Shown here: piece after piece, positions 1,623 through 61,227 of the stretch | How positions within the stretch are numbered: the first letter of the stretch is position 1 | Layout of the letters: each line of letters begins with the position of its first letter | Assembly: GCA_016648135.1 (NCBI GenBank) | Contig: JADDOH010010270.1 | Span: 1-64,000, forward strand | Reading direction: 5' to 3' | Length of the DNA: 64,000 nt | From: Agrypnia vestita | Taxonomy: Eukaryota > Arthropoda > Insecta > Trichoptera > Phryganeidae | Translations under genes and position numbers: made by a program | Notes under the pieces: model-generated | What the model was told of the DNA's origin: nothing | Databases searched by the model: none | The model's input: only the letters and a program-made list of their open reading frames with translations

Positions 1623-1924
1623 TAATGTCACCACAAAATAATTTTGCTGTGTTTGAAAAAGAAGTTTTTTATTTACTAATTTGGCAATCCAACAGGAAGA
1701 CATATATTCATGGTAGGAAAAGAATACAAAAAAGTAGTTATGTGTCTCCCACAATTATAGGACGATATACATAAGACGATGATAATTTTTTAACATTAAC
1801 ATAAAACGACTACTTTAACAGACATATAACAGATAAAACTCAGTGATAATTAGGAGGAAAAGTGAAATAAAATAGTAATAATTAGTAATGCGTATAATGT
1901 ATAATACATATAATGCACATTATC

Positions 1925-2110
1925 AGGGAGAGTGAACCTTTTTCAGTATCTGTCTCACCATACGACGTTAGGGAATCGTTTATTGAAGACTAAGAAGTCT
2001 TCAATAAAAGATTCCAATACCTATACACATTCGTCTCTGTGAGACTTCTATAATTTATCTTAATCAATGATTATCCCTTGGTGGACAAATTTTCAGTAAT
2101 TGTGTTCTCA
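1925..2110 (-). repeat. Foldback repeat family D, terminal fragment
   Basis: Contains the family hallmark TTCGTCTCTGTGAGACTTCT plus the downstream ATCTTAATCAATGAT segment shared with copies at 13185-13712, 18500-18790, 44640-44930 and 55670-57070. A perfect 12-bp hairpin with a 6-nt loop (about 1979-2008) lies just upstream. Confidence 0.55.
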
Positions 2111-2795
2111 TAACGCACAAGTAAAAATTTTGCGAAATATAAAATGTTTGAAATATCGATAATAAATGTACCAAGACCAAAATTTCGACTCTCGGCTTTA
2201 TGAAATCTGAATTATGTCACATATCCCATTTTTGCTATCAGTGACTCAAATATAAGTGTAAGTGTAATAAGTGTATGATGCTGTTTTGAGACAGGGGTAT
2301 AATTAATTATGGTATTTGAGGGGTATTTATTAATGGTATGGTATTTAAAAGGTAACAACACTAAGAGGAATCAAGAAAATTTTTTGGACGTAACTATTAT
2401 TCTCACAAGATTAGTATAATCGCTTAAGGCGTAAATTGCTTAAAATTTATTTAATTATTTTGACAATTTCAAAATGGCGGAATAATGTGCTGTCCCGCAA
2501 AGATCCTTCGTCTGACGTGAGCAGCTGGTAAAGTTAATTGTGTCGCCAGAGTATGAGATAAATAAAAAAGAAAATTATTTTATAATAACATGACGTAATG
2601 TCTATGATACATCAATATTAAATCAATTAATTTTCACTATTTTCCTATAAAATAGAAAAACAGTGTAAAAATGAATAATAAGCAAACGGCGTATTTTATA
2701 AAAAAAATCACATGTTGCATATTATAATTTTTTAATAATCTATATATCTGTTTTTACAGACATCTTGCAAAACTATGTGTGCAAAAAAACATTAT
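2111..2795. other. Unassigned AT-rich sequence
   Basis: No long frame, tRNA or recognised repeat. AAAATGGC at 2471-2478 is the only GC-island-type motif. I see nothing else I can support. Confidence 0.5.
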
Positions 2796-2977
2796 CAACA
2801 CTAAGTTTTTAACCACCGTTGAGTAATATGTAAACCTAAGCGCTTTCATAATATTACTCGACACTTTTCATCATTCATCTTCAGTTCTATCTAATATTGC
2901 CTCTAAAGATGATAGGTGTCCCCATTGAAAGCGCTTAGGTTTACGTATTACTCAACAGTGGATTAAAACTAAGTGTT
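2796..2977. repeat. Inverted repeat (about 53-bp arms) around a CTCTAAAGATGAT segment
   Basis: Left arm 2796-2848 and right arm 2925-2977 are reverse complements with few mismatches, centred on ACCTAAGCGCTTTCA and its mirror. The right arm carries AAAGATGATAGG ... ATTGAAAGCGCTTAGG, resembling the repeat at 54190-54270 and other PLE-type 3' repeats of this window. Confidence 0.65.
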
Positions 2978-3061
2978 TAAAATAAGTTTAATATTAAACT
3001 TCCACTCTAAGAACGAAACAATTTTTAATTTAACTGTATGTGCAGTTTGAACGCAAGAATA

Positions 3062-3626
3062 CATTATAGCAAATGTGGAGTATCCAAAAAAATTGACTGC
3101 GGTCAACGAGGATTACTAATTTATAATGTACTGAATTCAAAAATTTATTGGAAACAAACAGCCTGTAAATTTAAAGGAAGCATGATTATTGAAGGGATAG
3201 ATTTAAATAGGGATTTTCATTCTTACAATGCAAGAGGAAGCGACAACATAAGACCACCGAATAAAAAGAAAAACACCTCACAAAATTGTATGAGGTACAA
3301 AGGTCTAAAAATCTTCGATAGCCTGCCAAAGGAAATTCAAAACACGGTGAATATAAGGAGGTTTGAACGGGAGTGCAAAAATTTTATTGTAAAAACTTTT
3401 AAATGACTAGATGGAATGCAATATGTTTGAGTGAAATCATGTATATTATTAGCCCACACAACAAAATGTGTGGAACTAAATAATTAAAATAAATAAATAA
3501 AATAGATACATAAAATTTAGAATTAAGAACAATTTATATAGACAATAAGTAATCGTTGGTGATTGAAATCAAAATATTTAAAAATTTTTTTTGGATATCG
3601 ATGTCTTTTGCTTTTATACCCCTTCT
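3062..3626. mobile_element. Palindromic MITE, family A (copy 2), interrupted by a LINE tail
   Basis: The left arm 3062-3196 and right arm 3508-3626 match family A, ending GCTTTTATACCCC. The insertion 3203-3501 sits between the direct duplications ATAGAT at 3197-3202 and 3502-3507; other family-A copies read GATAGATACATAAA across this site, which shows the pre-insertion state. Confidence 0.75.
3203..3501 (+). pseudogene. 5'-truncated LINE 3' end (RT C-terminus plus 3' UTR)
   Basis: The frame to the stop at 3404-3406 reads SYNARGSDNIR, then GLKIFDSLPKEIQNT and FERECKNFIVKTF. This pattern (YNTR..., a short gap, KIYNxLPxxIK, FKxxLKxFL) is the usual C-terminus of CR1/jockey/L2-like reverse transcriptases. 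A 3' UTR and an AAATAAATAAATAA-type tail follow. The longer open frame that begins at 3038 is chimeric: its first half is MITE sequence, so it is not a real start. Confidence 0.8.
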
Positions 3627-3629
3627 ATG

Positions 3630-4840
3630 ATAAATGTTAAGACTACCTTACTTCATAGTCAAAATAATAATATATAGTATTAAAATTGAGTTATCACAAT
3701 TTTTCACAGTACACTCTAATATTTCTTTAATAATAATTTATCTATATTTTTTGTCCCGTTACAGGTTTTAGTCTGTCCAATAGTTTGTTAAATAGTTTTG
3801 AAATTACTTTCTGTTTGGTCCTGTCACCGTAATTTTGATTGTTTTTGAAATTAATTAAATTTTTTCCTAGTTTCTTTATTCGTTATTTGTCGTGTCGTAT
3901 ATTTGAGTTTTAATTGAGCCGAATCCGATTTTTACCAATTTTTTATTCTTAATTTAATTTATTTAATCTTTTAATTAAAAGGTAATTAATTGTATATATT
4001 GTTGCATAAATTTTAATATTCTTACTACATACGTGGGTAGGCGTAGGTACATAATTGCTTATTTCTGAGGGTAGATACACATTATATCAAATTCATCCCC
4101 ATTTTCTAAGGCTTCCATGTTTGAGCAAGGGTGTGTGGAGAATATTGCTCCTAAGATTTATGTCTGAAAAGATTACGTAATTTAAATTGTTTACTGAGGG
4201 AATTTATAGGGGGTTGGTTCTGACATGTTTTGAAGCATTGTTTGAATAGATAATTGAATAGATTAGGGCGCTTCTCGTATAACTTAGCAAAGAAATGTTG
4301 AATATGGATTTTGGGGTTAATAATTAATAATAGGTTTGGAGCCACCAGCGTCGTGTAACTAAATGAATTAAAACAGTAATTATATTATGATAATTATTAT
4401 TATTATCATAATAATTTATTCTCCAATATTATTTAAGACCTTGGATTCTTATTTTGACGCTGTCCAAAAATGTAGAGTAAATTGGATTGTTTAAGATAAT
4501 AAAATGAAAATGAAATTTTTTCAGATTCGACAGCATACGTTGGCACCGTCGATATATTATTGTTTTTTTTAAATTTAATAATTAAAGATTGAAAAATTGC
4601 CTTGAATACGTTATCAAAGTGAGCAATCTATATATTTTCAAGTTCACTGTAAATTCAAATACAGATGGATTTAATCAAAATTTGGCATGAATATATATTG
4701 TTGTATGCAACTGTCATAACAATCTGAATTGTAAGTGTAATAACTATGTATTTTTAACGTATTTTCTGAGGTATTCAAATCATTTTTTAGTAGATATCTT
4801 ATTTAATAAAATTTTTTATTTTTATATTTTATAAATAAGA
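3630..4840. other. Unassigned AT-rich sequence
   Basis: No coding signal, tRNA or recognised repeat. A nearly perfect AT-only hairpin (ATTATGATAATTATTATTAT and its mirror) occurs at about 4383-4412. Confidence 0.5.
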
Positions 4841-5060
4841 GAGTCTTATTTAGAAAGAAATGAGTAATCGCAAATGATGTGTCTTTTTTGGGTGAAGTTC
4901 GTTTCTCAGCAACGCTTGAGACAACAGTTTTGACGAGTCGGTAAAGAAGTCTACGGCTCGAGCAAAGAAATTTGCAGCTTAGAGATGAAATTCTTTTGCA
5001 ACCTTTTTTTTTGTCACAATTAATAAAATAAAAATATGTTGTAGGGGTGAATATACGGTA
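4841..5060 (-). repeat. Dispersed repeat P
   Basis: Shares GTAATCGCAAATGATGTGT, GACGAGTC-GTAA-GAAGTCT and a TTTTTTTGTCA-AAT-AATAAAATAAA stretch with 43262-43390 and 44080-44120, so it is an interspersed repeat of unknown class. Overlapping frames have no recognisable domain. Confidence 0.45.
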
Positions 5061-5303
5061 TTTGATTTTTTTGTGTCCCTGAAGGAAATGAAATCTGTTC
5101 CATTCAATATTGATAATTTCTCTATTTGACACTATTTTTAAATTTGTAATGATGAGGGCCAGAAGATTTTTTCATTTTTTTAAATTTTATAAGCACCAGA
5201 GGAAAATGTGTTACCAGGGGAGTGACACTATTGGCAGAGTAGTGACAAATTAAAGCAGGGAAGTGTCAGGCTATTGATTATTAGCTAAGAAAGGGGACTA
5301 ATA

Positions 5304-7891: not shown

Positions 7892-7990
7892 CTAAACGCC
7901 TGCGCTATGAGAAATAGGTATAACTTGCTGCTATGGAGTGATCACTAAGCGAATATCTTAATCATTAGACCAACAATCACGCAATGTTCG
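7892..7990 (-). repeat. SINE family B (copy 2), 5' part after LINE insertion
   Basis: Continues the SINE interrupted at 7013: GCTAAACGCCTGCGCTATGA, then a decayed tRNA-like head (GATCACTAAGCGAATATCTT). Confidence 0.6.
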
Positions 7991-8305
7991 ATTCCTATCT
8001 TATATTTGGTTTTGTTTGTAAATATATATATATATAAAGAAAGCCATGTTTCTCTACCCGCCAAGTTTTCTCCACAACCAGCTACAACCACTCACCGGGG
8101 GTTATGGTGGTGGATAGCCCCTGGTGTCACATTGAAAATATGCGAGTTTGGTGGGGGTGGCTGTACGTGGGTCGGAGTGGGTGACGAAAATGTGCTTTCA
8201 AGCACATTGGTTTGTTATGCGAAGGCCGCAAATGTTTCAGATTGTTTCAAAATAGGCGCGCCGACTGTGTCGGTGAGTCTAGAAGGTTCCGCGAAAATCT
8301 GCTCT

Positions 8306-8351
8306 AGAAAGTTCTGGAAGGAGAAGGTTCTAGAAAATTCCCGAAATTTCT
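8306..8351. promoter_or_regulatory. Heat-shock-element array 1 of Helitron A (3+6 pentamers)
   Basis: 8306-8320 is three contiguous alternating pentamers (AGAAA GTTCT GGAAG). After a one-base spacer, 8322-8351 is six more in perfect nGAAn/nTTCn alternation. HSF trimers bind three or more such units, so this is far above the usual minimum. Confidence 0.75.
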
Positions 8352-8417
8352 ATAACGTTCTAAACTGAGCGGCGGAATGTGTCGGTGTGTCTAGAAGGTT
8401 CCTGTACATTCGATAAA

Positions 8418-8468
8418 TTTCTTGAAAGTTCTGGAAGGAGAATGTTCTAGAAGGTTCGCGAAAATTCT
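8418..8468. promoter_or_regulatory. Heat-shock-element array 2 of Helitron A (4+6 pentamers)
   Basis: 8418-8437 gives four perfect alternating pentamers. After a one-base spacer, 8439-8468 gives six more (AGAAT GTTCT AGAAG, then GTTCG, CGAAA, ATTCT). Confidence 0.75.
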
Positions 8469-8529
8469 ATGACGATCCAAACAGTGTACTAAACTCTACG
8501 CGTGCGAAGCCGTGCGGGCACAGCTAGTC

Positions 8530-10434: not shown

Positions 10435-10861
10435 TCAATATATTATATATATAAAAAGAAACCGGTGTTTCCATATCCGCCAAGTTTTCTCCACAACCAG
10501 CCACAACCACCCACTAGTGGTTATGGTGGTGGATAGCCCCTGGTGTCACATCAAAAATATGCGAGTTTGGTGGGGGTTGCTGTGCGTGGGTGACGAAAAT
10601 GTGCTTTCTAGCACATTTTTTGTTATGGGAAGACCGCAAATGCTTCAGATTATTTCAAAATAGGCGCGCCAACTGTGTCGGTGAGTCTGGAAGGTTCCGG
10701 AAAAATCTGCTCTAGAAAGTTCTGGAAGGAGAAGGTTCTAGAAAATTCTCGAAAGTTCTATAAGGTTCTAAACTGAGTGGAGAAATGTGTCGGTGTGTCT
10801 AGAAGGTTTCTGTACATTCAATAAATTTCTTGAAAGTTCTGGAAGGAGAATGTTCTAGAAA
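10435..10861 (+). mobile_element. Helitron-like element (copy B), 3'-truncated
   Basis: Begins TCAATATAT after A and follows copy A closely, but stops at 10861 inside the second heat-shock-element array. Adjoining sequence (10862 on) is the antisense 3' UTR of a LINE, also present at 53578-53770. The CTAG end is missing, so this copy could not be mobilised through its own 3' end. Confidence 0.75.
10714..10861. promoter_or_regulatory. Heat-shock-element arrays of Helitron B
   Basis: Perfect alternating pentamers: 10714-10728 (3), 10730-10759 (6), 10826-10845 (4) and 10847-10861 (3, cut by the junction). Confidence 0.7.
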
Positions 10862-11077
10862 GAAGTGAAAGTTTTAGGTTATGGAAAAACTATGAGAGTC
10901 AAAGAATTAGAGGTAAAAGGGGAATTAGGAATAGATAGGAAAGGACAAATCTACTTAGTTAAAAGGACAAGAGATAATAATAAAAAGAAGTGCAAATGTA
11001 TATGTATAGCATAAAGATATCTGATCAATACATCTGCATATATATATATATATATTTTATTTTTATTTTTATTTTTT
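10862..11077 (-). repeat. LINE 3'-UTR fragment (antisense), with TA repeat
   Basis: Nearly identical to 53578-53770, where it lies downstream of an RT C-terminus on the minus strand. It ends in a TA microsatellite and T-rich sequence. The apparent 50-codon plus-strand frame is therefore fortuitous. Confidence 0.65.
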
Positions 11078-16120: not shown

Positions 16121-16312
16121 GAGACAGTCATGATAGACCAAGATAATGCCTGCCCCGGATAGGAGATCCGTGGTTCGAATCCCGGTAGCAGGAAAATATT
16201 TTTTAGTGTATTTGATTTTTCTGTATGTCTTTCTAATTAATTTATTAATTTGGTCCTAAATTTCATAGAACTTCACAATAAGAATGTGTTCTTGAATATA
16301 ATATACGTGCGT
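16121..16312 (+). mobile_element. tRNA-Arg-carrying element, family K (copy 2)
   Basis: tRNA-like 16121-16192 with B-box GGTTCGAATCC and 3' CCCGGTAGCAGG, then the family tail TTGATTTTTCTGTATGTCTT, ATTTATTAATTTGG and the outer arm ACAATAAGAATGTGTTCTTG. Confidence 0.7.
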
Positions 16313-16442: not shown

Positions 16443-16640
16443 TTAATCAATTAATAAATGAGATTTACAGATAAGGTCGATATATTCACGGAAATTTACG
16501 AGGCCGCTATAGCGTAATTGGATAACGCACCTGCTCCGGATGAGAGGAGATCCGTGGTTTGAATCCCGGTAGCAGCCAAATATATTTCGGGGATTTGATT
16601 TTTTTGTACGTCTTTCTAATAGATGAATTAATTTGGTTTC
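16443..16640 (+). mobile_element. tRNA-Arg-carrying element, family K (copy 3)
   Basis: tRNA-like 16502-16577: acceptor GCCGCTA/TAGCAGC, D arm GCGTAATTGGATAACGC, TCCGGAT at the anticodon loop, B-box GGTTTGAATCC. Short inverted ends: ATTAATCAATTAATAAA and ...AATTAATTTGG. tRNA-Arg-like because GGATAA plus T(T/C)CGGAT occur in the same positions as in tRNA-Arg. Confidence 0.7.
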
Positions 16641-30710: not shown

Positions 30711-30916
30711 TTCTATTAACATATCTCACATAGTAAAATTTCTAAAAAGTGAGAAATGAATTATAATATGAACTTTTCTTCAAATTCCTTTCTATTTTAT
30801 TTCAAAACATAAAATTGATCCTTGCGAAAAAGAAAAAAGATGAAAGAAAATCAAGTTATCAAAAATTGTTTTATTAAAGCTAAAAATGTTCTTAGGTTTT
30901 CACGGCCACTCAGAAT

Positions 30917-31120
30917 CTTCAAGTTTGTGTTTACTGGGGTATTATGCCGTGTTGTTACGATCTTTCGGGCCGACGTTTCGGATCCCATTGCAGGGTCCAT
31001 CATCAGGGCTGATGTGTCTACACATCAGCCCTGATGATGGACCCTGCAATGGGATCCGAAACGTCGGCCCGAAAGGTCGTAACAACACGGCACAATACCC
31101 CAGTAAACACAAACTTGAAG
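30917..31120. repeat. Foldback family L: 101-bp-arm hairpin
   Basis: Arms 30917-31017 and 31020-31120 are reverse complements with about two mismatches and only a CT spacer. Core GTTTCGGATCCCATTGCAGG. A transcript would form an almost continuous long hairpin. Confidence 0.9.
31028..31068 (+). ncRNA. Hammerhead-like core in foldback family L
   Basis: GCC (31028-31030) / GGC (31066-31068) stem I, CTGATGA 31031-31037, one extra T, stem II GGACCC...GGGATCC, then GAAA 31058-31061 and CGTC. The mirrored arm carries the antisense twin. Stem III would be minimal (ACGT), so only weak support. Confidence 0.35.
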
Positions 31121-31129
31121 ATTATTAAA

Positions 31130-46787: not shown

Positions 46788-48072
46788 TTAGGTCCTTACA
46801 TATGAAATTGGCGTTTAGTATGGGAGGAACATAAAGCCGATTTTTTTTATTATAATATATTTATTTAATCAAAGTATGTACCATTGCTATCTATGCACTT
46901 TTGCCATCTCATAGGTAGTTCATCGATCGCTTTACTAAAAAAACCATTCGGACGGGAATCAATAAAATCTTTGAAGGCGGTTTGGACTGCCCCATCGGAG
47001 TTGAATTTTTTCCTTTGCAAGAAGTTATCCAAATTTCGAAAAAAATGGTAATCTGTTGGGGCAAGGTCCGGAGAGTACGGTGGATGTCTTAGACATTCCA
47101 ATTGAAGCTCCTCTAATTTGGTAGCCGTCTGTTGTGCAGTGTGTGGTCTAGCGTTATCATGAAGCAGCAGTGGCCTAGAGCGATTAACCAGCCTCGGTTG
47201 TTTAGCAGCTAGCTTTTCCATCATGGTTTGCAGTTGCTGACAATAGACATCTGCCGTAATCGTCTGGCCAGATTTAAGAAAGCTGTAGTGAACGACACCA
47301 GCACTGGTCCACCAAACGCTCACAAGTAACTTTTTTGGAGTCAATTTTCGCTTGGGGCATGGTTTGGCTGGTTCGGCAGGGTTCAGCCATTGCAATGAGC
47401 GCTTTCGATTATGGTACAGGATCCACTTTTCATCACAGGTAATGATTCGATTAAAAATCCCTTCATTATTGTGCCGGTTGAGTAATGCAACGCAGCAGTC
47501 AACGCGCGTTTGTTGATTTGCTTCACTCAATTTGTGAGGTACCCACCTTTCAAGCTTTTTCACCTTACCAATTTGCTTCAAGTGGATTAAAACAGTTTTA
47601 TCACTAACACCGCAGCCTGCAGCTAACTCGGATGTGGTTTGCGATGGATCCGCTTCCACAATAGCCTTCAATTCTTCATTATCAACTTTGGTCTCCGGCC
47701 GTCCACGGGGCTTGTTCTGCAGGTCGAAATTTCCAGAACGAAAACGTTGGAACCAAAAACGCACTGTGTTTTCTTTTGCGGCACCGTCGCCATACACATC
47801 ATTAATCCTTCGAGCCGTTTCTGCAGCACTGGTGCCACGGTGGAACTCGTACTCGTAAATAACGCGATATTTCAAGTTTTTCATTTTGTAAACTGAGTGA
47901 CGCAAAGAAAAAAACAATTGAGGAAAAAACAAATGAATTATAATTTTCAAAACACAAATACATGAGCAAATAGCTGTATAAATTTGGATTTGGAATTCCT
48001 AACCAAAGAGAAGATATTTGAGATCAAATTTGCCAGTACGGCAAAACGCCAATTTCATATGTAAGGACCTAA
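46788..48072 (-). mobile_element. Complete mariner element (cecropia-type), 1285 bp
   Basis: The terminal inverted repeats (46788-46816 and 48044-48072) agree over 29 bp, starting TTAGGTCCTTACATATGAAA, and are flanked by TA (46786-46787, 48073-48074). A full-length transposase frame lies between. Both ends, TA duplication and intact coding make it a structurally complete, probably young, insertion. Confidence 0.95.
46865..47884 (-). CDS. Mariner transposase, cecropia-like subfamily (339 aa)
   Basis: It catalyses cut-and-paste transposition by binding the element's TIRs and joining it into TA sites. An N-terminal paired-type helix-turn-helix (residues about 1-112) is followed by WVPHKLSE (114-121). 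The DDE catalytic domain has D151 (TCDEKW), D243 (LHDNARPH) and D278 (APTDYHFF), with exactly 34 residues between the last two: the mariner D,D34D signature. It ends RWQKCIDSNGTYFD, as in cecropia-type mariners, and has the usual length of about 340-350. I chose the ATG at 47884 because the frame from 47950 adds 22 hydrophobic residues (MKIIIHLFFPQLF) unlike the family. No stop or frameshift is seen; an AATAAA follows the stop. Whether it is active cannot be read from sequence. Confidence 0.95.
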   Translation of the reverse strand: MKNLKYRVIYEYEFHRGTSAAETARRINDVYGDGAAKENTVRFWFQRFRSGNFDLQNKPRGRPETKVDNEELKAIVEADPSQTTSELAAGCGVSDKTVLIHLKQIGKVKKLERWVPHKLSEANQQTRVDCCVALLNRHNNEGIFNRIITCDEKWILYHNRKRSLQWLNPAEPAKPCPKRKLTPKKLLVSVWWTSAGVVHYSFLKSGQTITADVYCQQLQTMMEKLAAKQPRLVNRSRPLLLHDNARPHTAQQTATKLEELQLECLRHPPYSPDLAPTDYHFFRNLDNFLQRKKFNSDGAVQTAFKDFIDSRPNGFFSKAIDELPMRWQKCIDSNGTYFD

Positions 48073-53424: not shown

Positions 53425-53752
53425 TTATTTATTTATTTATGGGAAACTAACAGTACATATAAAGAGATTGTACATGATTATTGAACAGTATAGAGACCAT
53501 CTTACAAGTTTCCACAGAATTAACATGTTGTGAATTAACATAAAGCAACTATAACTTGAGTTACATAATAAAAAACAAAAGAAGTGAAAGTTTTAGGTTA
53601 TGGAAAAACTATGGGAGTCAAAGAATTAGAGGTAAAAGGGGAATTAGGAAAGGATAGGAAAGGACAAATCTACTTAGTAAAAAGGACAAGAGATAAGAAT
53701 AAAAAGAAGTGCAAATGTATATGTATAGCAAAAGATATCTGATCAATACATC

Positions 53753-54361: not shown

Positions 54362-54625
54362 ATATATATATATTCAAGAACACATTCATATTTGTGAAGT
54401 TGTAATTTTAGTTTTAAACCAAATTAATTAATCAATTAATAAAAATAAGAACTACATATAAGGTCGATATATTCACGGAAACATAGAGGGTTGCTATAGC
54501 TTAGTGGTCAGAGCACCAGCCCCGGAAAGAAGGTGACCTGGGTTCGAATCTCAGTAGTAAACTAATGTTTTTTCGTGAATTAGATTTTTCTGTATGTCTT
54601 TCTAATTGATTAATTAATTTGATTT
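54362..54625 (+). mobile_element. tRNA-carrying foldback element, family K (copy 5)
   Basis: Left arm ATTCAAGAACACATTC and CCAAATTAATTAATCAATTA; tRNA-like 54488-54560 (AGCTTAGTGGTCAGAGCACC, B-box GGTTCGAATCT); right end CTAATTGATTAATTAATTTG, the mirror of the left. Its anticodon region differs from the other copies. Confidence 0.7.
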
Positions 54626-57353: not shown

Positions 57354-57960
57354 ACTAGCTGTCCTTACCCGGCGTTGCACGGGTTAAGGATTAAGTTTTA
57401 AATAAATTTGTGAGGGTAAACAAAGGTTCGATTCTAATGGTATAGATTTGCAACGAAAATAATAAGCGGAGTTTAATAATAAGTTTTCAAATTTTGAGGT
57501 CAAAAGGTACAGATTTACCTAGAAAATATATCAGGAGTGGGGAAGGGGTAAGAGAATAGGGAGGAAATGTTGCCTATGTTTCCCGCCCAGTACTAAAGAA
57601 TAAGTTTCCAAATTTTAAGTCCAATCGGTCAAATGGTACAGATTTGCATCGAAAGTATTTCAGGGGGAGGGGAAGGGGTATGAGAATAGGGAGGATATAT
57701 CACTTATGTTACCCGCTGAGTCTTGAAGAATAAGTTTCCAAATTTTGAGTCCGATTGGTCAAACGGGATAGAAATAATATAAGAAATAAAATATGTCAGG
57801 AGGAGGGGAAGGGGTATGAGAATAGGTGAGAAATGTTGCCTATGTTACCCGCCGGCTCCCAAAGCATAAGTATGCAAAATTTGAATCGAATCGGACAAAC
57901 GGTGTAGATTTGTATAGAGAACAGACAGACAGACATAGAAATATTAGAATTTAATTGTAA
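57354..57960 (+). mobile_element. RTE-like repeat containing a 115-120 bp minisatellite
   Basis: Begins CTAGCTGTCCTTACCCGGCG and ends GACAGACAGACATAGAAATA. Between about 57480 and 57900, units with AATAAGTTTCCAAATTTT, GGTCAAA-GG and GGGGAAGGGGTATGAGAATA recur about four times. Confidence 0.65.
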
Positions 57961-58034
57961 AATGTGAAATATAAAAATAATAAAAGGAAATTCAGCTTCG
58001 CTAGACGCGACCCGAGGGACGAACATTAACCATC

Positions 58035-58470
58035 GCAGAAATAGTGTCAGCGCGGGGTCCCCCCCCCCGGGCAGGTGCGGGGGGCGCCGTCTCAAGGAGC
58101 GCCTCTCAGCCAATGGGGGACCGCGGCGCGCTCCATAAAGCTTCTAAGAAATCGATAGGTGTTTTCCCGCCCGGCCCGCGCCCCGCCGCGACCGCCATCT
58201 TAGCTCCGCGGGCGGGACGCGGCGCGGCGGCGGGCGCGCGCGCGAGCGGGACGCCGGCCGCGGGGAAGAGTGCGCGCACTCGCCGCCCGCGAATCCAAAA
58301 TGGCCGCCGCCGCCGCTTCTTAAACATTCTGCCGGGCGGCGTGGGTGGGTTTTTCAAGCGCGGCCCGCGGCGGGGGGGCGTCTTGGAGGGGGCCGCGGGC
58401 CGCGGGCCGCTCACCTGCGAGACGCCCCGGGCGGGGGTGCCTACCAGCCGGTGTGCGCTGAATTTGACAG
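58035..58470. promoter_or_regulatory. Strong CpG island with two YY1/Pho-type sites
   Basis: The most GC-rich stretch here, dense in CpG (GCGGCGGGCGCGCGCGCGAG). GCCATCTT at 58194-58201 and AAAATGGCC at 58297-58305 are on opposite strands. Four long overlapping frames are Gly/Arg/Pro/Ala-rich and compositional. A CpG-rich promoter is possible, but no initiator or exon can be assigned. Confidence 0.5.
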
Positions 58471-58484
58471 CATCGCGAGTACTG

Positions 58485-58555
58485 CGGATGAAATTTAACA
58501 CTTTCAGTCACCGCCTGGCACCACTGCGATGTGGAGTTTAGGATCGATAATCGGT
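58485..58555 (+). repeat. Dispersed repeat H (copy 1)
   Basis: GATGAAATTTAACACTTTCA, CACCGCCTGGCACCACTGCG and ATGTGGAGTTTAGGATCGAT; also at 59800-59860 and 59905-59985. Confidence 0.6.
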
Positions 58556-60733: not shown

Positions 60734-61227
60734 TCAATATATATATAAAGAAACCCGTGTTTCTCTACCCGCCAAGTTTTCTCCACAACCAGCCACAACC
60801 ACCCACCGGTGGTTATGGTGGTGGATAGCCCTTGGTGTCACATCGAAAATATGCGAGTTTGGTGGGGGTGGCTGAGCGTGGGTGGGAGTGGGTGACGAAA
60901 ATGTGCTTTCTAGCACATTGTTTTGTTATGGGAAGGTCTAAAAGGCTTCAGTTTGTTTCAAAATAGGCGCGCCGACTGTGTCTAGAAAGTTCCGGAAAAA
61001 CCTGCTCGAGAAAATTCTGGAAAGAGAAGGTTCTAGAAAATTCACGAAAGTTCTATAAGGTTCTAAACTGAGTGGCGGAATGTGTCGGTGTATCTAGAAG
61101 GTTCCTGTACATTCGATAAATTTCTTGAGAGTTCTGGAAGGAGAATGTTCTAAAAGGTTCGCGAAAGTTCTATGACGATCCAGTGTACTAAAAATCTACG
61201 CGTGCGAAGCCGCGCGGGCAAAGCTAG
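60734..61227 (+). mobile_element. Non-autonomous Helitron-like element (copy C, complete)
   Basis: 5' TCAATATATATATAAAGAAA, 3' hairpin GCGAAGCCGCGCGGGC and CTAG (61224-61227), inserted between A and T as Helitrons do. Repeat R resumes on the other side, so both ends are fixed by context. About 494 bp, no Rep/helicase. Confidence 0.85.
60984..61054. promoter_or_regulatory. Heat-shock-element array of Helitron C
   Basis: 60984-60998 (3 pentamers), 61009-61023 (3), then 61025-61054 (6 in perfect alternation: AGAAG GTTCT AGAAA ATTCA, then CGAAA and GTTCT). A second, slightly mutated array follows at about 61120-61173. Confidence 0.75.

What the first reader, a model, noticed from the sequence alone, without database searches (positions are those of the whole stretch)
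8306..8468. Helitron A carries about 19 heat-shock-element pentamers in two nearly uninterrupted arrays
Direct reading gives runs of strictly alternating nGAAn/nTTCn: three (8306-8320) plus six (8322-8351), and four (8418-8437) plus six (8439-8468). HSF trimers need about three. Runs of six in perfect phase twice within 170 bp, each preceded by a shorter run and a one-base gap, are not expected by chance. Helitrons carrying heat-shock elements have been reported to rewire the heat-shock response in Caenorhabditis; an insect counterpart would be an independent case.
Basis: partly seen in the sequence, partly recalled or inferred. Interest (0 to 1): 0.9.

Follow-up and report, generated by a model that had tools for sequence, protein, structure and literature searches.

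The report
Caddisfly Helitron carrying heat-shock-factor sites
An abundant jumping gene in a caddisfly genome carries dense, correctly spaced binding sites for the heat-shock master regulator, a combination we found reported only in Caenorhabditis worms, although binding and heat response remain untested here.

Summary
The motif call is correct. Strictly alternating GAA/TTC pentamers run 3+6 at 8306-8351 and 4+6 at 8418-8468 (19 in all); 100 dinucleotide shuffles of the window never exceeded three. They lie in a roughly 510-bp non-autonomous Helitron (A|TCAATAT...CTAG|T) present three times in the window and, by inference, thousands of times in the genome.

The host is a caddisfly by a COX1 copy. 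The genome holds 8,508 perfect six-pentamer sites against 0 for the reversed pattern, and 164,595 trimers against 8,649. All 15 sextet places examined (12 elements, first in contig order) lie in this family.

The array is a roughly 115-bp tandem unit: two per short copy, about 8 to 15 in two longer relatives. Young copies decay neutrally (core/rest 95% interval 0.68-1.11), but between diverged units cores are kept better than spacers (10.8% against 24.4% mismatch), suggesting selection on the replicating lineage.

Best reading: an insect counterpart of Caenorhabditis HSE-Helitrons, in which HSF drives the parent element. Not shown: HSF binding, heat induction, host effects, the autonomous parent.

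The parts
8020..8527 (+). Copy 1: full-length non-autonomous Helitron (5' start degenerate in this copy; 3' end ...GGGCACAGCTAG followed by T)
8260..8370 (+). HSE repeat unit 1 of copy 1 (about 110 bp)
8306..8351 (+). HSE array 1: runs of 3 and 6 alternating nGAAn/nTTCn pentamers separated by one base
8372..8482 (+). HSE repeat unit 2 of copy 1, 78% identical to unit 1
8418..8468 (+). HSE array 2: runs of 4 and 6 pentamers separated by one base
8501..8527 (+). Helitron 3' terminus: predicted 6-bp stem (CGTGCG/CGTGCG, loop AAGC) then GGCACAGCTAG; next base T. Stem no more stable than in shuffles
10435..10860 (+). Copy 2: from 5' end TCAATAT to within HSE unit 2; breaks off at 10859/10860 at another repeat that recurs at 53578-53733
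10714..10861 (+). HSE arrays of copy 2 (runs 3, 6, 4, 3; a further run of 3 at 10690-10702)
60734..61227 (+). Copy 3: full-length Helitron TCAATAT...AAAGCTAG|T
60984..61171 (+). HSE arrays of copy 3 (runs 3, 3, 6, 3)

Best explanation
An abundant non-autonomous Helitron family of a caddisfly carries a tandem-unit heat-shock-element array. The unit (about 115 bp) has 13 pentamers in its long-form consensus, so an array could bind several HSF trimers. In the replicating lineages the array most likely served as a stress-responsive promoter or enhancer for the parent element, and short derivatives still carry two units. By rolling-circle copying the family has spread thousands of strong HSEs; most copies then decay neutrally.

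Shown: Helitron ends, HSE arrays at exact spacing, genome-wide excess of HSEs, neutral decay of sampled copies, and better conservation of cores than spacers between units. Inferred: copy number in the thousands, HSF binding, heat induction, origin of the short form from a longer one, and the promoter role in an autonomous parent.
For: Arrays and chance control. Spacing control: period 5 only, 19.05 per kb in the family against 0.057 outside. Genome counts: 8,508 sextets against 0 for the reversed pattern; 164,595 trimers against 8,649. 15 of 15 sextet places lie in the family (12 elements, the first 15 of 50 listed and 8,508 in all). Ends, over 48 distinct insertions: next base T in 44 of 45 readable 3' ends, CTAG in 41 of 45, and A before 31 of 31 recognisable starts (52 copies with near-duplicates gave 48/49, 45/49, 35/35). 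Unit 1 against unit 2 of the short consensus: core 1/36 changed, spacer 7/24, outside 12/50 (Fisher P 0.005, 0.006); with unit 2 as reference 1/30, 6/20, 13/60 (P 0.012, 0.030). 26 unit matches in two long relatives: core 93/862, spacer 140/573, outside 160/1026 mismatched; circular-shift control reached by 0-6 of 113 shifts. The long form's tail is repeated at 40 or more places. In C. [quoted passage not shown]
Against: No binding or expression data. No Rep/Helicase gene was found joined to the array: 20 of 102 Rep-domain hits were cut out (three lineages, 17 of the 20 loci from one), and none has an HSE unit of its own within at most 1.5 kb of the Rep domain; L069 holds a separate short copy beside the Rep frame. 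The 5' ends of those elements were mostly not reached. A possible Rep fragment in the long form's tail is only 8-10 residues at E about 3, worse than a chance match in the window (E 0.039), and Pfam finds nothing. Sampled copies show no constraint on the pentamers. The unit test rests on two elements found through the sextet pattern and treats sites as independent; cores beat sequence outside the arrays only modestly (10.8% against 15.6%; core columns against all other columns, P 0.022).
Confidence: 0.6

Rival explanations
1. The array is a structural minisatellite of the Helitron: TTCTAGAA-type palindromic repeats expanded during copying, or bound by the Rep protein. The resemblance to HSEs is incidental and HSF plays no part.
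For: The unit number varies, two in short copies and about 8 and 14-15 in two long relatives, as in minisatellites. Alternating GAA/TTC is inherently palindromic, and the two array strands fold slightly better than shuffles (z -1.57 and -0.62). Sampled copies decay neutrally.
Against: Only the HSE period (5 bp) is found. The spacers, which a palindrome or another protein's site would probably also need, are the least conserved columns (0.75 mean conservation against 0.89 core and 0.85 outside).
Confidence: 0.2
2. The element captured a host heat-shock gene promoter by chance. The HSEs are inert passengers that hitch-hiked to high copy number, with no selection for them.
For: Helitrons can contain captured promoters (recalled; the xanA example is in the reference list of PMC6544945, passages). 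Sampled copies show neutral decay.
Against: The array exists as a multi-unit structure whose cores were kept better than spacers between units. No host heat-shock promoter could be compared: every hsp70 (PF00012) search did not complete (first, last).
Confidence: 0.15
3. Selected copies have been co-opted as host heat-shock enhancers, as in Caenorhabditis, and the family has rewired the caddisfly heat-shock response.
For: The short consensus holds 12 overlapping trimers and the median of 38 sampled copies still has 10 (range 6-12). With copies probably in the thousands, some near promoters are expected (inference).
Against: No copy was shown near a heat-responsive gene, and the copies sampled show no constraint. 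Neither expression data nor gene annotation were available.
Confidence: 0.15

Closest known systems
HSE-bearing Helitrons of Caenorhabditis (Helitron1_CE, HelitronY1/Y1A/Y4_CE, Helitron2_CE, Helitron7_CB; PMC6927752, PMC6765114)
   Same: Rolling-circle element; dense tandem HSE clusters; mostly non-autonomous copies.
   Different: Different phylum; HSEs organised in about 115-bp tandem units of variable number; HSF binding and heat induction unproven here; no autonomous copy with the array found. [quoted passage not shown]
Non-autonomous insect Helitrons such as Lep1, Hel-2 and Csup_Hel1 (PMC6544945, passages)
   Same: Short non-autonomous elements with TC...hairpin...CTRR termini.
   Different: The main text of that paper does not contain 'heat shock'; sequence homology to those families was not tested.
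HSF1-bound satellite repeats (human satellite III; PMC9032817, search listing and start of abstract only; satellite III detail recalled)
   Same: Repeated DNA offering many HSF sites across the genome.
   Different: That is satellite DNA; here the sites are dispersed by transposition.

Membership tests
Helitron (rolling-circle transposon) | 5' TC start, inserted after A | tested here: met
   31 of 31 distinct insertions with a recognisable TCAATAT start are preceded by A; the start was not recognisable in the other 17 of 48, copy 1 included
Helitron (rolling-circle transposon) | 3' CTRR end followed by T | tested here: met
   CTAG in 41 of 45 distinct insertions with a readable 3' end, next base T in 44 of 45
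Helitron (rolling-circle transposon) | No target-site duplication | not tested
   no empty sites were compared
Helitron (rolling-circle transposon) | Hairpin near the 3' end | tested here: inconclusive
   a 6-bp stem with a 4-nt loop is predicted in copies 1 and 3, but no more stable than in shuffles (z 0.69 and -0.92; 0.61 and -0.39)
Helitron (rolling-circle transposon) | Rep/Helicase partner | tested here: inconclusive
   102 Rep-domain hits in the genome, many in open frames of 685-1605 aa; none shown to belong to this family
Heat-shock element array | Three or more alternating nGAAn pentamers at exact 5-bp period | tested here: met
Heat-shock element array | Bound by HSF on heat shock | not testable with these tools
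   needs ChIP, CUT&RUN or gel shift
Caenorhabditis-type HSE Helitron | Dense HSE clusters lie in the Helitrons | tested here: met
   15 of 15 examined sextet places, 12 elements, in the family (a small, not random part of 8,508); 67 of the 100 trimers listed fall in 8 clusters of five or more (my count). The whole-genome share was not measured
Caenorhabditis-type HSE Helitron | Transposase mRNA driven by the HSEs | tested here: inconclusive
   no autonomous copy with the array found; expression not testable
Caenorhabditis-type HSE Helitron | Common descent with the nematode elements | not tested
   no nematode sequence was fetched

The most novel reading that the evidence does not exclude
An insect genome whose heat-shock-factor landscape is in large part built by one Helitron lineage: about 165,000 canonical HSE trimers, some 19 times the reversed-pattern control, of which perhaps half or more, and nearly all the strong six-pentamer sites, come from an element that independently evolved or captured a multi-unit HSF array to couple its own activity to stress. 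This would be convergent with Caenorhabditis. The sheer number of strong sites could act as a genome-wide sink that sets the threshold of the host heat-shock response.
Probability: 0.3. Interest if true: 0.88.

Novelty: new variant of a known kind. Interest (0 to 1): 0.72.

Why it matters
HSE-laden Helitrons were reported as possibly restricted to Caenorhabditis (PMC6927752). A second case in a distant animal group would suggest that Helitrons repeatedly tie themselves to the heat-shock factor, and would let one ask whether stress-coupled transposition is a recurrent strategy. Caddisflies are freshwater insects whose response to warming is under study (listing), and tube-case-making caddisflies have repeat-expanded genomes (PMC7936034, title and passages). 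Heat RNA-seq and HSF ChIP in one species would test both element control and host rewiring.

Tried and rejected
Lepidopteran host: my first guess, from a mariner frame 83% identical to a Bombyx record. Rejected after a COX1 copy, read with the invertebrate mitochondrial code, had as best hits a 99% cluster labelled only Hexapoda, a 98% Trichoptera cluster, then caddisfly records at mostly 91-93%; other orders came at 85-89%. The copy lies at about position 121,000 of contig C1261, so it is probably a nuclear insertion of mitochondrial DNA; the order is safer than the genus. Species: assembly size resembles Agrypnia vestita (PMC7936034, passages: 1.353 Gb in 25,541 contigs, against 1.322 Gb in 19,947 here), unproven.

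Chance motif, and GAA/TTC richness at any spacing: rejected. Selection on individual copies: not seen in the sample. Autonomous parent with the array: sought among 20 Rep loci, not found. The main autonomous lineage, read to its 3' end in one copy (L081), ends by eye in a different palindrome followed by GCTAG|T. The long form's tail as a Rep fragment: weak only. The first alignment of copies was spoiled by reverse-strand loci and was redone; its numbers are not used. Viral contigs: 0, 0 and 1 exact pattern matches, of no use beyond background. Not obtained because the server did not answer: hsp70 genes and their promoters, a count of the family 3' end, a genome-wide wrong-spacing control.

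Rows dropped before counts: L003, L018 and L027 (near-duplicates of L002, L009, L026) and's decay test; one search found a fourth pair (L017/L032), so the 38 copies of the decay test are 37 distinct insertions; it was not recomputed. Copy 2 of the window was left out. Ten copies found through the sextet pattern and L069 were aligned but kept out of the 38; L069 alone gave core 3/46, spacer 6/30, rest 14/326.

Full report
Observation. The runs described are exact: 3+6 and 4+6 strictly alternating GAA/TTC pentamers, 19 in all, at 8306-8351 and 8418-8468. In 100 dinucleotide shuffles of the whole window the longest run was three, and in 20,000 local shuffles four (3 cases). Two more copies in the window carry the same arrays. 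A spacing control over 27 sequences (the window and 26 loci chosen for similarity to copy 1) gave 278 trimers at period 5 in 14.6 kb of family DNA and one trimer in total at periods 3, 4 and 6-11. Outside the family, 139.8 kb held 8 trimers at period 5 and 0-6 at each other period. At period 5 that is 19.05 against 0.057 per kb.

What the element is. Copies have the ends of a Helitron. Of 48 distinct insertions, 45 had a readable 3' end: 41 end in CTAG and 44 are followed by T. In 31 of the 48 the TCAATAT start is recognisable, and all 31 are preceded by A (the 52 copies include four near-duplicates and give 45/49, 48/49 and 35/35). A 6-bp stem with a 4-nt loop is predicted just before the end in copies 1 and 3, but it is no more stable than in shuffles. 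Of the 52 copies, 39 match over 502-514 bp. The only stop-to-stop frame of 95 aa or more listed over copy 1 is one of 139 aa at 7949-8368, so the copy is taken as non-coding. Copy 2 in the window breaks off at 10859/10860, where another repeat begins that recurs at 53578-53733.

Host. The window lies in a 1.32-Gb assembly of 19,947 contigs. A COX1 copy in it, read with the invertebrate mitochondrial code, has as best hits a 99% cluster labelled Hexapoda and a 98% Trichoptera cluster, followed by caddisfly records at mostly 91-93%, with other orders at 85-89%. The host is therefore taken as Trichoptera; the species is not established.

Scale. The perfect six-pentamer pattern occurs 8,508 times in the genome and its reversed control 0 times. 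The canonical trimer occurs 82,301 + 82,294 times against 4,349 + 4,300 for its control. The first 15 sextet places in contig order were cut out, of 50 listed; they belong to 12 elements, and all 15 lie in the family. By my count on the listing, 67 of the 100 trimers shown fall in 8 clusters of five or more. The rest are scattered and include other repeats. The 8 trimers outside the family in 140 kb, if typical, would make nearly half of the genome's trimers; so the family's share is large but was not measured. A copy number was not obtained: one search scored 40 of 2,933 first-look candidates, and the sextet count implies some thousands of copies.

Architecture. Each short copy contains two units of about 110-115 bp, 78% identical in copy 1. 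One of the 15 sextet loci, L055, and L057, which I fetched because sextets listed on contig C7 looked unusual, turned out to be long relatives. They have the same 5' end, then many tandem units: 9 unit matches in L055 and 17 in L057, partial ones included, so about 8 and 14-15 units. The 26 matches give a unit consensus with runs of 4, 3 and 6 pentamers; individual units are partly decayed (26 and 89 pentamers left in runs of three or more in L055 and L057). A shared tail follows and, by eye, L057 ends in CAGCTAG|T. The tail is repeated at 40 or more places, with 1,177 first-look candidates. The short form is therefore plausibly a shortened derivative of a many-unit element; the reverse is not excluded.

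Selection tests. (a) Within the short family, copies depart from the consensus about equally in cores and elsewhere. For 38 copies (37 distinct insertions), CpG sites left out: core 58/2391, spacer 60/1482, rest 354/12554; core/rest ratio 0.68-1.11 (95% bootstrap; 29 copies gave 0.63-1.21). These copies are the best matches to copy 1, so they are mostly young, and older copies were not tested. Inserted copies as a group look unconstrained. Spacers look somewhat faster (4.0%). (b) Between the two units of the consensus, cores differ at 1 of 36 sites, spacers at 7 of 24 and outside at 12 of 50 (Fisher P 0.005 and 0.006); with unit 2 as reference, 1/30, 6/20 and 13/60 (P 0.012 and 0.030). (c) Across the 26 unit matches of the long forms, mismatch to the consensus is 93/862 in cores, 140/573 in spacers and 160/1026 outside (P 1.7e-11 and 0.002; by columns, core against all the rest, P 0.022). 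Shifting the core mask around the unit reached the observed contrast in 0 of 113 shifts, in 2 when units with a perfect sextet were dropped, and in 1-6 when the mask was defined on one element and tested on the other. This fits selection on the lineages that replicate. The P values treat sites as independent, only two long elements were used, and both were found through the sextet pattern.

Parent element. The genome holds 102 Rep-domain matches, many near-identical and in open frames, so Helitrons here were probably active recently. The 20 cut out fall in three lineages, 17 of them in one. None carries an HSE unit of its own within the flanks held (at most 1.5 kb); L069 contains a separate short copy beside its Rep frame. 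One copy of the main lineage, read to its 3' end, shows by eye a different palindrome, though with the same GCTAG|T terminus. A stretch of 8-10 residues of the long form's tail aligns at the start of the Rep domain in two lineages with E about 3, while a chance match in the window scored E 0.039; Pfam sees nothing. The autonomous parent is unknown.

Mechanism. The most likely reading is that the array recruits HSF trimers and made transcription of the parent element stress-responsive, as shown for Helitron1_CE (PMC6765114, passages; PMC6927752, passages). Short derivatives keep the array because it lies in the part retained. Binding and induction are inferred, not shown. The main rivals are a structural minisatellite and an inert captured promoter.

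Known work. Garrigues and others searched genomes with Helitron annotation at UCSC and found enrichment only in Caenorhabditis (PMC6927752, sections 5 and 9 read in full, passages elsewhere). The text prints the pattern scanned as NGAANNTCCNNGGAN. If that was literally used it is not the canonical HSE and could have missed cases; it may be a misprint. Ten full-text searches, joining Helitron, heat shock (element), HSF, HSF1, Lepidoptera, insect, Trichoptera, caddisfly and satellite in various sets, listed nothing that, by title and start of abstract, reports HSE-rich Helitrons in insects; one listed paper was opened and holds none in the passages seen (PMC11678190). Two caddisfly genome papers have no 'heat shock' in the main text (PMC7936034, PMC8881205, passages). 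Most subscription journals are not covered.

Verdict. Function in host heat response is open.

Noticed in passing
window 46865-47998 (-): Open mariner transposase frame of 377 aa (stop to stop); its best relatives are 90% and 84% identical, with a Bombyx mori record at 83%, which suggests recent activity.
   Followed up: partly
window 10859-11014 and 53578-53733: An unidentified repeat, 96% identical between places, begins where Helitron copy 2 breaks off.
   Followed up: partly
window 16503-16577, 54490-54562 and related stretches at 16172 and 46614: Two tRNA matches and a shared following stretch in four places, probably a tRNA-derived SINE family.
   Followed up: no
window 30914-31123: Inverted repeat, two 104-nt arms 98% complementary with 2 nt between.
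   Followed up: no
window 57498-57918: Tandem array of about three 130-136-bp units next to a GC-rich stretch with a 178-aa open frame at 58005-58541.
   Followed up: no
L058-L077 (genome loci): Three autonomous-looking Helitron lineages with long open Rep frames; copies of the commonest are 98.7-99.8% identical over the aligned stretch, which suggests recent activity.
   Followed up: partly
L057 reverse strand about 1868-5188, and L055 from about 430: Long relatives of the Helitron with about 14-15 and 8 tandem HSE units and a shared tail.
   Followed up: yes
L057 reverse strand about 2587-3808: An insert inside the long Helitron with matching inverted ends (TTAACCCTAGAAAGC...GCTTTCTAGGGTTAA), by look a piggyBac-like element at a TTAA site (label recalled).
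   Followed up: no
listing; window 47726: The trimer GAAATTTCCAGAA recurs at many dispersed places in the listing and also occurs inside the mariner frame, so another repeat adds single HSE-like sites.
   Followed up: no
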